From assembly GCA_030265585.1 (NCBI GenBank), contig JAJDGJ010000013.1, forward strand, positions 1-32,840: DNA of 32,840 nt, written 5' to 3'. Positions 2,539-29,155 of the stretch are shown here, piece after piece. The notes under the pieces are model-generated. The model saw only the letters and a list, made by a program, of their open reading frames with translations, was not told the origin of the DNA and did not search any database. The DNA is from Erysipelotrichaceae bacterium OttesenSCG-928-M19 (GTDB taxonomy: Bacteria > Bacillota_I > Bacilli_A > JAJDGJ01). The translations under genes were made by a program, and so were the position numbers. How positions within the stretch are numbered: the first letter of the stretch is position 1; every line of letters begins with the position of its first letter.

Positions 2539-2643
2539 GTATTACAATTATATGTTTTATCATATATGCATAGCAATATGGGCTATGTGTTTCTACCAAT
2601 CAACCGTAAATTGATGTACTATGATAAAAGTAATGCTTTTTTT
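2539..2643 (+). promoter_or_regulatory. Guanine-class purine riboswitch with terminator expression platform
   Basis: The aptamer core matches the purine riboswitch consensus: GTTTCTACC, CCGTAAAT and ACTATG are all present. P1 is ten perfect pairs (2555-2564 with 2620-2629), P2 pairs CATAGC with GCTATG, and P3 pairs ATCAA with TTGAT. The specificity base just before the 3' strand of P1 is C (2619), which predicts guanine/hypoxanthine recognition rather than adenine. Directly 3' of P1, GTAATGC (2630-2636) can pair with GTATTAC at the predicted 5' end of the RNA (2539-2545) and is followed by seven U's (2637-2643). P1 therefore continues into the terminator stem. Guanine binding is expected to stabilise P1 and stop transcription before purL. 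Confidence 0.92.
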
Positions 2644-24967: not shown

Positions 24968-25018
24968 ACTGGCGACGAACTGGCGATGGAAATAAAATTA
25001 GTCGTTTTTGTCGCCACT
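24968..25018. repeat. ACTGGCGA repeats, candidate integrase arm-binding sites
   Basis: ACTGGCGA occurs at 24968-24975 and 24979-24986 (11-bp period, one helical turn), and a near-copy in inverse orientation, TCGCCACT, at 25011-25018 inside the 3' end of the integrase gene. They lie about 100-140 bp from the presumed core site, where arm-type sites are usual. Confidence 0.35.
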
Positions 25019-26137
25019 AGTGATTTTAACACCCAAATTGTCCATCACGTTAACTATTGGATCCTCTGACTTTGGAATTGCATGAGCATATGTTCTAAGT
25101 GTAACTGTAGGATTAGCATGACCTAAGTTATCAGCTACTCTTTTAATATATATATCGTTCTCTAAAAGAATAGTAGAGTATGAGTGCCTAAAGCCATGTG
25201 GTGTTATTACCTTATCTAAGTCAGCTCTTTTAATAGCTGTGTTTAGTGGTCCTCTAAAATTATCAGCTGTAGGTTTATGGAATAGAAAACTATTGTTGTG
25301 AACTGGTCTAGTTCTTTTCACATCTTCTAAATAAAACTCAATCAATTCAATTATCAAACGAGATACTTCTACAGTTCTCTTTTCTCCATTCTTAGTTGTT
25401 TCTTTAATTATTCTTTTACCATTCTCATTTTTACCAACAGTTCTTCTAACAACTAAAGTATTATTATCAAAATCGATAGCATCGATTTTTAATGCTGATA
25501 CTTCACCAGGTCGCATACCGCTATAAAACATAATAGCGGCTTTTAGATAACTTTCAGGAGAAGTAAACTGAGCCATCACTTTTTCAAATTGTTCATAACT
25601 AACAAAATTGTTTTTAGCTTTCTCACTTTTTTGATAAGGCAAAGGTTTGATATGTCTAAATGCATCTTTTAGATCTAAGTTAAATGTTAGATCAGCAAAC
25701 CAATATACTCTTTTTAGAACACTCATTGCCTCGTTAATAGTATTGTTACTTGCTCCATCTTTTGAGTACTTTACTCTAAAACTATTAATCATTGCATAAT
25801 CGATATCCTCAACAAGAGTATCACCGAAGTAATTATGTAGAACACCATTCATATATGTTCTATCGTTTAAACGAGTAGAATCAGCGACTTCAAGTTTTCT
25901 AGCAGCGTCATATAATTCAGCAGCAGAAGCAAAAGTGATGTTAGTTGGCTCAGTATGATTAATGTAGAATTCTATTCCAGCTAGATATGCTTCCTTTTCA
26001 CTTTTAAAACCATATCTTCTTTTACGTTTTGGAACGTAAGCATTAAAATACCATTCACCTTCATGTCCTTCCCTAGTATCTCTACTAGTCTTGACTTTAA
26101 CATCTCTATCTATTTTTTGCTTTTTCTTTTTTGCCAT
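24998..26137 (-). CDS. int: Tyrosine recombinase (phage integrase)
   Basis: Catalyses integration and excision of the element. The start is ATG 26137 (379 residues, MAKKKKQKIDRD), eight bases after AAAGGAT; the frame is open for 16 more codons without a site. The N-terminal part (GEWYFNAYVPKRKRRYGFKS) resembles an AP2-like arm-binding domain, followed by a SAM-like core-binding domain and the catalytic domain. Catalytic residues visible: Arg209 (SGMRPGEVSAL), His314 and Arg317 (HGFRHSYST), His in LGHANPTVT, and nucleophile Tyr350 (RTYAH). It is the outermost gene at the left end, next to the interrupted ssb gene, as expected for an integrase beside its att site. Confidence 0.95.
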   Translation of the reverse strand: MAKKKKQKIDRDVKVKTSRDTREGHEGEWYFNAYVPKRKRRYGFKSEKEAYLAGIEFYINHTEPTNITFASAAELYDAARKLEVADSTRLNDRTYMNGVLHNYFGDTLVEDIDYAMINSFRVKYSKDGASNNTINEAMSVLKRVYWFADLTFNLDLKDAFRHIKPLPYQKSEKAKNNFVSYEQFEKVMAQFTSPESYLKAAIMFYSGMRPGEVSALKIDAIDFDNNTLVVRRTVGKNENGKRIIKETTKNGEKRTVEVSRLIIELIEFYLEDVKRTRPVHNNSFLFHKPTADNFRGPLNTAIKRADLDKVITPHGFRHSYSTILLENDIYIKRVADNLGHANPTVTLRTYAHAIPKSEDPIVNVMDNLGVKITSGDKND

Positions 26138-26189
26138 GTTATCATCCTTTTTAAATATGTACAAAATATAAAAATCAATAAACAATATG

Positions 26190-26217
26190 TTGTTTTTTTA
26201 AAAATCTATGTTACAAT
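26190..26217 (+). promoter_or_regulatory. Promoter of the small RNA
   Basis: TTGTTT (26190-26195), a 16-nt spacer and TACAAT (26212-26217) with TG one base upstream (extended -10). It fires away from the integrase start, toward a short non-coding unit. Confidence 0.6.
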
Positions 26218-26223
26218 AAGTAT

Positions 26224-26340
26224 ACCGAAGAGGAATACCTCTTGTCAGGTCTACATTGAGATTGTCAAACTTGTTTTTAAGCGTATAGTAAGTACGCGGC
26301 ACTCGATGGAACACTCGCACTTTGTGTGGGTGTTTTTTTT
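26224..26340 (+). ncRNA. Small structured RNA next to the DUF3800 gene (candidate DUF3800-type RNA)
   Basis: About 115 nt between a promoter and a strong terminator, with no credible ORF or ribosome-binding site. Three hairpins are visible: AAGAGG/CCTCTT (26228-26233, 26238-26243), GCGTA/TACGC (26281-26285, 26293-26297) and the terminator. Short direct repeats TTGTCA (about 26242 and 26263) and ACTCG (26301, 26313) could take part in alternative pairing. The unit is convergent with the DUF3800 gene, whose stop codon overlaps the last base of the T-run. Several classes of conserved RNA next to DUF3800 genes have been described (DUF3800-I and so on); I cannot tell whether this belongs to one of them or is new. 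Confidence 0.6.
26311..26340 (+). terminator. Terminator of the small RNA
   Basis: ACACTCGCAC (26311-26320) pairs with GTGTGGGTGT (26324-26333), ten pairs with two G-U and a TTT loop, followed by eight T's. Confidence 0.85.
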
Positions 26341-27049
26341 ACGGCAAATATAGTTTAACGAGTGTATTTGAATTTAATTTTTTTCTTTGATCAGTTAAAT
26401 AATAGTGTCTCATATTGCCAACAAAAATGTCAGCTGCTTGAATTAAATAATTATCTTTAGAGTCACAGTAATGAACATCGCATGTCATACTGTCCAAAAT
26501 TGGTGTAAAGGTAATGGCATAATTGAAGTTACTAACACCATTTACTAGTTCTTCATAAATTGACTCTTTCAAATTATAATATCCATTAGATTTTGTGGAA
26601 CTTTGATCAATAGAAAGAACTAAATTGATAGTGTTACTAATATTACCACTATTTAATTCATATCTAACAACCTCTTTAACAATTCTTTTTATTGAATAAT
26701 CTTTAAATCTTCCTCTTGCTCCTTTATTTTGAATAATACTTTTATTAAGTTTATTATTTGAAATAATTACAGCATATGTTAACGAATGTTGTTTGATTAA
26801 ATTAGTCAATCTACGAAGGTGCTTTGGTTCAATCATATTATGCTTAATTTCTGGGCATTTTTTATTGCAATTTTCAGGTTTGTCGCTACAATATTTACAC
26901 TTTAACTCAGAGATTATACTGAAGTATTTTCTTTTAAAATCATTTTTTTGCTTCTTTGCTTGAAACCAAATACCACCATAGATTGCTACGCTCTCATTTT
27001 GATTTATTAAACCAGACTCGTCCATATATAGATATAAATCATCACTCAT
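26339..27049 (-). CDS. DUF3800 protein (RNase H-like fold)
   Basis: The 236-residue protein begins MSDDLYLYMDESGL, the DUF3800 signature with Asp10 and Glu11, and continues with acidic residues in LVLSIDQSS and in the C-terminal IQAADIFVGNMRHYY; together these form the acidic site of an RNase H-like fold. A Cys cluster C51-x2-C54-x6-C61-x3-C65, with His70 nearby, looks like an inserted zinc-binding knuckle. DUF3800 proteins are common in prophages and defence-rich loci and often lie beside small structured RNAs; their activity is not settled. An AAAGGAGG site precedes the ATG. It is the last gene of the repressor-side operon and is convergent with the small RNA. Confidence 0.88.
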   Translation of the reverse strand: MSDDLYLYMDESGLINQNESVAIYGGIWFQAKKQKNDFKRKYFSIISELKCKYCSDKPENCNKKCPEIKHNMIEPKHLRRLTNLIKQHSLTYAVIISNNKLNKSIIQNKGARGRFKDYSIKRIVKEVVRYELNSGNISNTINLVLSIDQSSTKSNGYYNLKESIYEELVNGVSNFNYAITFTPILDSMTCDVHYCDSKDNYLIQAADIFVGNMRHYYLTDQRKKLNSNTLVKLYLP

Positions 27050-27075: not shown

Positions 27076-27519
27076 CTATTCTTCATATAAATCAATAGAA
27101 AACCAAAACTCATTGGCTTCCATGTTATAGTCTCCACTTAGGAATGTGCTTGTCGACTTAGATTCAAGCATACTTATATACTCATCGATACTTTCAAATC
27201 CTAAATCATAATTTTTTGTTTTCTCGTAAAAAGATATTGCACATGTAAAGCCATCACTAATTGAAACAGGCGTGTTTGCTACTATATTTTCACTTGCCAT
27301 TGACATAAAAACTCTTGTCAGTCTTTCATTTTCAAAATGAGTAAAGATGACACAATAGTTATCATCATAAGATATTGTTTTAACAGCATTATCGTTAGTA
27401 TTAATTGTTCCAGATAATGCAGTTGATAATTCATCAATGTTTGTTATATTTTCTTTCTCACTGCTCCCACATCCTACAATCAACATAATCATTAATAATA
27501 AACTTGTTACTTTCTTCAT
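27076..27519 (-). CDS. Phage-encoded lipoprotein, candidate superinfection exclusion factor
   Basis: A 147-residue protein with a type II signal peptide: MKKVTSLLLMIMLIVGC, with the lipobox LIVGC and Ser-Ser following, so it should be tethered to the outer face of the membrane. The mature part is small, acidic and without a known domain; it contains two cysteines (DNYCVIF and GFTCAIS). Lipoproteins between integrase and repressor in temperate phages of Gram-positive hosts can block DNA entry of related phages (Ltp of Streptococcus phage TP-J34 is the known case), which makes this a reasonable but unproven idea here. It lies downstream of a terminator-like hairpin and 26 bases before the DUF3800 gene. 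Confidence 0.75.
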   Translation of the reverse strand: MKKVTSLLLMIMLIVGCGSSEKENITNIDELSTALSGTINTNDNAVKTISYDDNYCVIFTHFENERLTRVFMSMASENIVANTPVSISDGFTCAISFYEKTKNYDLGFESIDEYISMLESKSTSTFLSGDYNMEANEFWFSIDLYEE

Positions 27520-27542: not shown

Positions 27543-27567
27543 AAAGAGCCTAAGGGCTCTTTTTTTA
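27543..27567. terminator. Hairpin between two lysogeny-module genes
   Basis: AAAGAGCC (27543-27550) pairs with GGCTCTTT (27555-27562), loop TAAG. The T-run is long on the plus strand (27560-27567) and short on the minus strand, so leftward transcription may only be attenuated here and rightward antisense transcription stopped. Confidence 0.6.
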
Positions 27568-28125
27568 TTTTAATACAACATTATTTGTATACTTAATTAT
27601 TTTGCCAATATCACCATTTTCTATAGTGATGTCTTTTTGCGTAGTTTTTAATTTTTCTCCTTTACTACCATACATTTTTTTGTATTCTTCAGGTTGTGTA
27701 CCAGTTGAAGAAATAGTTATCTCTAATTTATATGTGCCTTTTTGTAAAGTTGCGCCATTTTGTGTGAAAGTATCGCTATCAAAAAAGCCATCTTTAACTT
27801 CAAATTTATATTGTCCATTATAGTCTATTTTTTTGTTTGAAAAACTAATAATTCCTTTTGTCCCATCAGGAAGATTAGTATAACAATTGATATAAAACAG
27901 TCTATCCTTAGAAAACTCTTCAACTTTTAACTCAATATTAATAGTATCACTTTTTTCTTTACTATTATTTGTTTTTTTATCTTCATCTTTTTTCTCAGGT
28001 TTTGATACTTGTTTTTCAGGATCGTTTATTCCTGTATCTGTGTCTGGAAAAATTAAACCTATTACAATTAATATTGCAAAAAAGGCAACTACGCCAACAA
28101 TTATTTTTTTACCAATTTTCTTCAA
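27565..28125 (-). CDS. Membrane-anchored phage protein with beta-rich outer domain
   Basis: The 186-residue protein has one N-terminal transmembrane segment (about residues 8-26, IIVGVVAFFAILIVIGLIF), a charged, low-complexity linker (KPEKKDEDKKTNNSKEK) and a C-terminal domain with alternating strands (INIELKVEEFSKD, LFYINCYTNLPDGT, GTYKLEITISS). The shape, an anchored and exposed Ig-like or DUF4352-like domain, recurs in phage lysogeny modules, but I do not recognise the family. Its start lies two bases after the repressor stop, so it is expressed from the prophage and may change the surface of the lysogen. Confidence 0.7.
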   Translation of the reverse strand: MKKIGKKIIVGVVAFFAILIVIGLIFPDTDTGINDPEKQVSKPEKKDEDKKTNNSKEKSDTINIELKVEEFSKDRLFYINCYTNLPDGTKGIISFSNKKIDYNGQYKFEVKDGFFDSDTFTQNGATLQKGTYKLEITISSTGTQPEEYKKMYGSKGEKLKTTQKDITIENGDIGKIIKYTNNVVLK

Positions 28126-28127
28126 TC

Positions 28128-28769
28128 TTATTCTCCTTTACTTATAACAATTTTCTTTAGTATTCCTACAACTCTAAAATCATCTTTATCATCTACTTCA
28201 ATATCATCATATTTGCTATTAGCAGACTGTAGCGAAATCAAGCCACTGTTAAACTTTTTAAACTTTTTGATGTAATCCTCACCATTTAAACTAAATGCAC
28301 CTATTTGACCGTTTTCGAGCGTTTCTTGGCGTTTGAATAATAATAGTGAATTATTAGTTATATGCTCATCAATCATTGAATCACCTTTAGCAACTACAAG
28401 AAAGTAATCATTGAAGTTTCCAATTATCCAAGAGTTAGGAATGTCAAAAGTTTCTGTTGTCAAATAGTCTTCATTATTCTTACCTAGACCACATGAGCCT
28501 TCGCCAATTATCCGCACAGGGAAGTGATAGACATCATCAGTTGTTTGAACTGGTTGTATATTAATGTCATTGCCTAATAGATAATCAACCGATACATTAA
28601 AGTATTCTGATAAAGTGAATAGAGACTGTTGAGATGGTTCATGTGTTCCTCGTTCATAATTTGATATTGTTGCTCTATCTACACCTAGAAGTTCAGCTAA
28701 ATCTTGTTGTGTTATTTTTCTATTAGATATACTTGATTTAGCTTCTCTTAATTCTTTTATCTTATTCAT
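28128..28769 (-). CDS. CI/LexA-like phage repressor (HTH + S24 peptidase)
   Basis: The 213-residue protein has an N-terminal HTH (about residues 18-42, ITQQDLAELLGVDRATISNY) and a C-terminal S24 self-cleavage domain. A cleavage site is visible as Cys93-Gly94 (EGSCGLG), the UmuD-type alternative to Ala-Gly. The catalytic dyad is Ser131 (AKGDSM) and Lys168 (EDYIKKF). RecA-stimulated self-cleavage and SOS induction of the prophage follow from family knowledge. It is the first gene of the leftward lysogeny operon and divergent from the Cro-like gene. Confidence 0.93.
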   Translation of the reverse strand: MNKIKELREAKSSISNRKITQQDLAELLGVDRATISNYERGTHEPSQQSLFTLSEYFNVSVDYLLGNDINIQPVQTTDDVYHFPVRIIGEGSCGLGKNNEDYLTTETFDIPNSWIIGNFNDYFLVVAKGDSMIDEHITNNSLLLFKRQETLENGQIGAFSLNGEDYIKKFKKFNSGLISLQSANSKYDDIEVDDKDDFRVVGILKKIVISKGE

Positions 28770-28930: not shown

Positions 28931-29155
28931 ATGGAGAGTCCTATTAAACAAGATAGAGAAAAGAAAAAGCTTACTCAAGAAGAACTAGCAAAAAAAGTTG
29001 AAGTTACAAGAGAAGCAATATCACAAATAGAAAGAGGAGTATTTACCCCATCATTAAAAAGAATAAAAATAATTGGGGATGTATTAGGTGCTAGTAATAA
29101 ACGTAGACAAGAGTATTCAGATTTCTTTTGTGAGTTTAGCAAAGGGAAGGAGTGA
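28931..29155 (+). CDS. Cro-like HTH regulator
   Basis: A 74-residue XRE-family protein, little more than the helix-turn-helix: KKKLTQEELAKKVEVTREAI, then SQIERGVFTPSLKRI. It is preceded by AGGAGGTG and transcribed from the consensus promoter divergent from the repressor. The position is that of Cro, expected to shut off repressor synthesis, although the sequence also resembles small YozG/XRE activators. The next gene follows after four bases. Confidence 0.85.
   Translation: MESPIKQDREKKKLTQEELAKKVEVTREAISQIERGVFTPSLKRIKIIGDVLGASNKRRQEYSDFFCEFSKGKE

What the first reader, a model, noticed from the sequence alone, without database searches (positions are those of the whole stretch)
26190..27049. 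Small RNA transcription unit paired convergently with a DUF3800 gene in the lysogeny module
Between the integrase and the DUF3800 gene lies an independent unit on the opposite strand: promoter at 26190-26217, about 115 nt with several hairpins and no ORF, and a ten-pair terminator with eight T's whose last bases overlap the DUF3800 stop codon. Established knowledge: DUF3800 has an RNase H-like fold and several classes of structured RNA have been found near DUF3800 genes, but their joint function is unknown. Inference: protein and RNA form one system, possibly an RNA-guided or RNA-inhibited nuclease used against competing phages or as an addiction module.
Basis: partly seen in the sequence, partly recalled or inferred. 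Interest (0 to 1): 0.78.

Follow-up and report, generated by a model that had tools for sequence, protein, structure and literature searches.

The report
Prophage nuclease paired with DUF3800-I RNA
A prophage carries a catalogued but unexplained two-part module, a small folded RNA next to a gene for a predicted nuclease, and comparison across genomes suggests that the RNA works as the protein's dedicated partner, most likely its antidote, rather than as a guide.

Summary
The RNA at 26217-26343(+) is a full-length match to Rfam RF02969 (DUF3800-I; 57.4 bits, gathering score 44.2). It faces a PF12686 DUF3800 gene convergently and overlaps its stop codon, between the integrase and the cI-like repressor. 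It is therefore a new member of a catalogued RNA class whose function is not known.

New here:
(1) All 26 modelled base pairs show double (compensatory) changes over 57 distinct sequences, and the -10 box sits at a fixed place before helix P1.
(2) The window protein's 10 relatives in phage and plasmid records: 9 have the RNA within about 130 nt, unannotated. The tenth has an RNA elsewhere in its genome.
(3) In 135 genomes of one mycoplasma family, all 17 with a close DUF3800 gene also hold the RNA. Seven genomes keep the RNA without an intact gene.
(4) All four relative orientations occur, and some RNAs are unlinked, so the RNA probably acts in trans.
(5) The RNA has no consistent guide-like segment.
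(6) The protein model has an RNase HII-like fold with conserved acidic residues.

Best reading (0.45): an RNA-neutralised nuclease, working like a type III toxin-antitoxin or AbiF system. No toxicity, binding or phage protection has been shown.

The parts
26190..26217 (+). promoter of the RNA: -35 TTGTTT 26190-26195 (weak), -10 TACAAT 26212-26217
   Evidence: sequence; -10 at the same place in 40 of 55 family members
26217..26343 (+). DUF3800-I RNA, Rfam match region (model 1-115)
   Evidence: RF02969, 57.4 bits, gathering score 44.2
26224..26340 (+). predicted transcript
   Evidence: start inferred from the -10 position; fold z -3.7
26224..26250 (+). helix P1
   Evidence: minimum-energy fold of the window RNA; family helix 1, 91.8% of cells paired
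26254..26308 (+). P2/P2b domain enclosing hairpin P2c (26267-26276) and hairpin P3 (26281-26297); conserved UUUAAGCG before P3
   Evidence: fold, Rfam alignment, covariation; P2c is inferred from the family structure and is unpaired in the single-sequence fold
26309..26340 (+). intrinsic terminator, 12-pair stem and T8, overlapping the DUF3800 stop codon
26339..27049 (-). DUF3800 gene (236 aa), RNase HII-like fold; conserved D10, E11(E/D), E67, K69, D148, S197, D207
   Evidence: PF12686 52.6 bits; alignment; model pLDDT 90.3; best PDB match 1eke
24998..26185 (-). prophage integrase
   Evidence: PF00589, E 8.5e-24
28128..28769 (-). cI-like repressor (HTH plus S24 peptidase)
   Evidence: PF00717 and PF01381

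Best explanation
This is a two-component RNA-protein module carried as an accessory gene pair in the lysogeny region of a prophage. The RNA is made from its own promoter and ends at its own terminator. It folds into P1 plus a P2/P2c/P3 domain and binds the DUF3800 protein, a predicted metal-dependent nuclease with an RNase HII-like fold. Binding keeps the nuclease harmless, so the RNA acts as an antitoxin in trans. Loss or disturbance of the RNA during infection by another phage, or loss of the prophage, frees the nuclease, giving abortive defence and/or prophage maintenance. Shown by computation: RNA identity and covariation, protein fold, close linkage, co-occurrence, parallel divergence, absence of a consistent guide segment. 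Inferred: direct binding, inhibition rather than activation, nuclease activity and its substrate, defence or addiction.
For: RF02969 match with pair-preserving changes in all 26 modelled pairs. Protein-first test: 9 of 10 tblastn relatives in phages and plasmids have the RNA within about 130 nt, the tenth has one elsewhere. In 135 genomes of one family all 17 with a close DUF3800 gene have the RNA (Fisher p 7e-13 with Rfam hits alone). All four orientations occur and DUF3800 genes without a neighbouring RNA lie in genomes with an RNA elsewhere, which points to action in trans. RNA copies outnumber or outlive the protein: arrays and orphans, RNAs beside dead or truncated genes. RNA and protein diverge in parallel (Mantel r 0.55, 0.38 dereplicated, 0/5000). 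RNase HII-like fold with conserved acidic residues. Phage positions by the lysis genes or between a CI-type regulator and the integrase. Precedent: AbiF is neutralised by its catalogued structured RNA in cis and in trans (PMC12373285).
Against: No experiment shows binding, toxicity or protection. The asymmetry (RNA beside dead genes, never the reverse) is largely explained by the larger mutation target of the gene (p 0.25). A protein that needs its RNA as an activating cofactor would also never be found without it. There is no tandem-repeat RNA as in classical type III systems. The subfamily alignment A2 was built mostly from RNA-linked genes, so the genome-wide tally is partly circular; the tblastn test is not.
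Confidence: 0.45

Rival explanations
1. Activating cofactor: the RNA is a structural scaffold that the DUF3800 nuclease needs in order to fold or act, for example to recognise a phage product, without base-pair guiding.
For: The protein is not found in a genome without the RNA; parallel divergence; a conserved single-stranded core UUUAAGCG and UGUAA.
Against: RNAs persist without an intact gene in 7 of 24 RNA-bearing genomes of one family, and arrays of up to five RNAs sit far from the gene. Neither is decisive.
Confidence: 0.3
2. RNA-guided nuclease: part of the RNA pairs with a target DNA or RNA that DUF3800 then cuts.
For: RNase HII-fold enzymes cut RNA-DNA hybrids (general knowledge); DUF3800 proteins occur as accessory proteins in some CRISPR type V-A2 and VI-F loci (PMC10910872, PMC12669027).
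Against: Covarying helices with mostly 5-9 nt unpaired runs, no consistent variable stretch, and array copies that differ by compensatory hairpin changes. The transcript is predicted to start at the first base of P1 and to end in the terminator, so no free end serves as a guide. Some members do have unpaired runs of 11-21 nt in the fitted alignment.
Confidence: 0.07
3. Cis-regulator: the RNA mainly controls DUF3800 expression as a leader, attenuator or antisense transcript.
For: In 12 loci the RNA and its terminator lie just upstream of the gene; in the window the two transcripts converge.
Against: The RNA also occurs downstream, convergent, divergent and unlinked, with the same structure.
Confidence: 0.06
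4. Chance neighbour: the RNA and the gene are unrelated passengers of the lysogeny region.
For: Lysogeny regions collect unrelated accessory genes (general knowledge).
Against: Close linkage recurs in phages, a satellite phage, plasmids and chromosomes with strong co-occurrence.
Confidence: 0.02

Closest known systems
Rfam RF02969 DUF3800-I RNA with PF12686 DUF3800 genes (catalogued structured-RNA candidates)
   Same: Full-length RNA match above the gathering score and an adjacent DUF3800 gene
   Different: The window RNA is an average member with a longer P1; convergent orientation, seen in 4 of 26 linked pairs
AbiF with RNA RCd22 (abiF motif RF03085) of a Clostridioides difficile prophage, PMC12373285
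   Same: Prophage-borne protein beside a catalogued structured RNA; association with phage lysis modules; RNA shown there to act in cis and in trans
   Different: The AbiF protein is of the Abi_2/Cas13-related family, not an RNase HII fold; RCd22 holds two motif copies; neutralisation is proven there, inferred here
Type III toxin-antitoxin systems (ToxIN, CptIN, TenpIN)
   Same: RNA, then terminator, then nuclease gene in the RNA-upstream loci; RNA proposed as antitoxin
   Different: No tandem repeats in the RNA, independent promoter, different toxin fold, RNA often downstream, convergent or unlinked
RNase HII
   Same: Best solved fold match (1eke, E 4.6e-7); acidic residues after the first strand (DES-G here, DEAG in RNase HII)
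   Different: Profile comparison finds no sequence similarity (hhalign probability 0.30); the GRG motif of RNase HII is absent
DUF3800 accessory proteins of CRISPR types V-A2 and VI-F (PMC10910872, PMC12669027)
   Same: DUF3800 domain with RNase H fold in defence loci
   Different: No CRISPR array or Cas gene was recognised among the genes scanned around this pair; the published V-A2-associated protein carries TPR repeats, this one is a single domain

Membership tests
Rfam RF02969 DUF3800-I RNA | Covariance-model score above the gathering threshold, full length | tested here: met
   57.4 against 44.2 bits, positions 1-115
Rfam RF02969 DUF3800-I RNA | Located next to a DUF3800 gene | tested here: met
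   Gene at 26339-27049, overlapping the terminator
PF12686 DUF3800 | Profile score above the curated cut-off | tested here: met
   52.6 against 21 bits
Type III toxin-antitoxin | Antitoxin RNA made of tandem repeats processed by the toxin | tested here: not met
   One structured unit of about 117 nt, no tandem repeat of a motif; processing not testable
Type III toxin-antitoxin | ToxN/CptN/TenpN endoribonuclease fold | tested here: not met
   RNase HII-like fold
Type III toxin-antitoxin | Protein toxic alone, neutralised by the RNA | not testable with these tools
   needs an expression experiment
AbiF/RCd22-like system | Abi_2 family protein and RF03085 abiF motif | tested here: not met
   Pfam gives DUF3800, Rfam gives RF02969 only
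RNA-guided nuclease | Variable guide segment in an otherwise conserved RNA | tested here: not met
   no consistent variable unpaired segment
RNase HII | Fold and sequence motifs of RNase HII | tested here: inconclusive
   Fold matched; sequence profile not matched

The most novel reading that the evidence does not exclude
DUF3800-I pairs are a distinct class of RNA-neutralised toxin with an RNase HII-fold effector, spread by temperate phages, a satellite phage, plasmids and chromosomes, with unlinked RNA copies acting as additional antidotes.
Probability: 0.4. Interest if true: 0.78.

Novelty: new member of a known kind. Interest (0 to 1): 0.5.

Why it matters
The library used here holds no paper that gives a function for the DUF3800 RNA families. 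The data narrow the options: a trans-acting structured partner RNA, probably not a guide, with a close DUF3800 subfamily that was not found without it in the genomes tested. They also point to tractable pairs in Streptococcus, Enterococcus and Lactobacillus prophages and plasmids. A short toxicity and neutralisation test would settle whether this is a new RNA-antitoxin class built on an RNase H fold.

Tried and rejected
A viral-contig search with the DUF3800 alignment could not start (no stretch conserved enough), and with the single window protein it confirmed nothing. The core-motif pattern in viral and genome contigs gave four loci, of which Rfam confirmed only L007 as DUF3800-I. Own model R1 was useless (only 6 pairs) and was replaced by R2 with the Rfam-like structure. 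Sequence-level homology to RNase HII was tested and not found. A guide segment was looked for and not found. G205 and G231 were compared for selection on an orphan RNA, but they are too close to tell. Distant DUF3800 genes (20-84 bits against alignment A2) are in general not tied to this RNA: G001, G142, G078, G019 and G197 have no RF02969 hit, and four such loci matched no DUF3800 RNA family in Rfam. Literature searches found no functional study of DUF3800 RNAs in the open library.

Full report
OBSERVATION. It is there. Rfam's RF02969 (DUF3800-I) matches 26217-26343(+) at full length with 57.4 bits against a gathering score of 44.2. The predicted transcript 26224-26340 folds 3.7 standard deviations below shuffles. 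Its terminator (12 pairs, T8) runs into the DUF3800 stop codon at 26339-26341. The -35 hexamer is weak (3/6), but the -10 (TACAAT) is where the family has it. In 40 of 55 distinct family members a -10 hexamer ends exactly at model position 1, against 0-13 at every other offset listed. The predicted start is then the first base of helix P1.

CONTEXT. The window is contig C5 of an incomplete low-GC Bacilli-like genome (one search gives contig and completeness; the group is inferred). On the minus strand run a cI-like repressor (28128-28769), two unassigned genes, DUF3800 (26339-27049) and the integrase (24998-26185); an HTH gene at 28931 runs the other way. This is the lysogeny region of a prophage, with ERF recombinase and HNH genes beyond. 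The module sits where temperate phages carry accessory genes expressed in the lysogen (general knowledge).

RNA FAMILY. In 392 genomes of the phylum 36 have RF02969 (53 hits). A structure-aware model built here (R2) gave an alignment of 58 matches, 57 distinct. All 26 base pairs show changes on both sides; 86.5% of cells pair, against 58.6% in shuffles and 31-43% with slid partners. The alignment was fitted to the structure, which favours it, and three of the 58 rows are weak extra hits, but the margin is large. The most conserved letters are UUUAAGCG before P3 and UGUAA in the P3 loop, likely contact sites (inference).

IS THERE A GUIDE? In rows that fit the model the longest unpaired run is 5-9 nt (median 7 overall). 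A minority reach 11-23 nt, including the window RNA (23 nt), whose longer P1 the model misaligned although it pairs in its own fold, and members whose P1 is absent or misaligned. Recently duplicated copies in G133 differ largely in hairpin P2c, with pair-preserving changes, and close relatives differ at scattered sites. This argues against a programmable guide, though a short loop contact is not excluded.

LINKAGE. From the RNA side, 26 of 53 RNAs lie within 1 kb of a DUF3800 gene: 12 tandem with the RNA upstream, 9 tandem with it downstream, 4 convergent as here, 1 divergent. From the protein side, tblastn of the window protein found three phage and seven plasmid-collection records (two of the latter are mycoplasma chromosomes by size, and Javan110 and Javan73 are near-duplicates). 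Nine of ten carry the RNA next to the gene, eight with strong scores and one weaker (L144: 22.3 bits with R2, 41.2 with Rfam, just under its threshold). None of the record tables read here marks it, though the plasmid tables omit RNA genes by design. The tenth, Mesomycoplasma hyorhinis, has an RNA elsewhere. Four of these loci follow lysis genes and two lie between a CI-type regulator and the integrase.

DEPENDENCE. In 135 genomes of one mycoplasma family, all 17 with a close DUF3800 gene (E below 1e-40, including a few broken copies) also hold the RNA, two of them found only with model R2; Fisher p is 7e-13 with Rfam hits alone. Seven genomes keep the RNA without an intact close DUF3800 gene. 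About nine RNAs sit beside dead or truncated copies. This looks like an antidote that may outlive its toxin, but the larger size of the gene as a mutation target explains it almost as well (probability 0.25). DUF3800 genes lacking a neighbouring RNA (G215, G117, one of two in G133, one of two in G406, M. hyorhinis) are all in genomes with an RNA elsewhere, so the RNA probably acts in trans. RNA and protein distances correlate (Mantel r 0.55; 0.38 after removing close relatives; 0 of 5000 permutations).

PROTEIN. Conserved across 25 relatives are D10, E67, K69, S197 and D207 (invariant) and D148, S12 and G13 (at least 90%); E11 is E or D. The AlphaFold2 model (pLDDT 90.3) matches RNase HII best (1eke, E 4.6e-7, probability 1.00), in line with the published statement that DUF3800 has an RNase H fold with a catalytic rearrangement (PMC10910872). 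A profile comparison with RNase HII finds no sequence similarity, so the link is at fold level. Catalysis is inferred.

MECHANISM. The data show a dedicated RNA-protein pair and make purely cis regulation, guiding and chance association unlikely. They do not separate an inhibitory RNA from an activating one. I favour inhibition (0.45) because RNAs exist in excess of and beyond the protein, and because AbiF, another prophage protein with a catalogued structured RNA, was shown to be neutralised by that RNA in cis and in trans (PMC12373285). It works like a type III toxin-antitoxin, but it is not a member of that family: fold and repeat structure differ.

NOVELTY. The RNA class and its association with DUF3800 are catalogued; this is a new member. 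New here are the protein-first test, the trans arrangement, the absence of a guide segment and the RNase HII-level fold assignment for this subfamily.

Noticed in passing
L037 4427-5347 (G133:C1:718426-719346): Five DUF3800-I RNAs in a row, each with its own promoter-like -10 and terminator, far from the two DUF3800 genes of that genome; several lack helix P1.
   Followed up: partly
G215:C1 at 25372, 328796, 502739, 831018 (L044, L029, L045, L043): Four dispersed RNA copies, the one examined (L097) lying between large surface-protein or lipoprotein-like genes; the only DUF3800 gene is at 946557.
   Followed up: partly
L139 (MK448589.1): A Streptococcus satellite phage carries the RNA plus DUF3800 pair (98.4 bits), annotated only as a hypothetical protein.
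   Followed up: yes
L088 (G103) and L087 (G120): Strong RNAs (86 and 94 bits) beside only the first 20-40 residues of DUF3800; in G103 a Fic-family gene follows. Neighbours include a YqaJ-like gene.
   Followed up: partly
L098 and L099 (G205, G231): GC-rich DUF3800-I RNAs with no DUF3800 gene or remnant nearby, between apparent housekeeping genes; the two species are too close to test for selection.
   Followed up: partly
window 2540-2641: Purine riboswitch (RF00167, 79.7 bits).
   Followed up: no
window 27076-27519 and 27565-28125: Two genes of the same direction between DUF3800 and the repressor with no Pfam match; the first begins like a lipoprotein, the second with a membrane or signal segment. 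Possibly surface-exclusion proteins.
   Followed up: no
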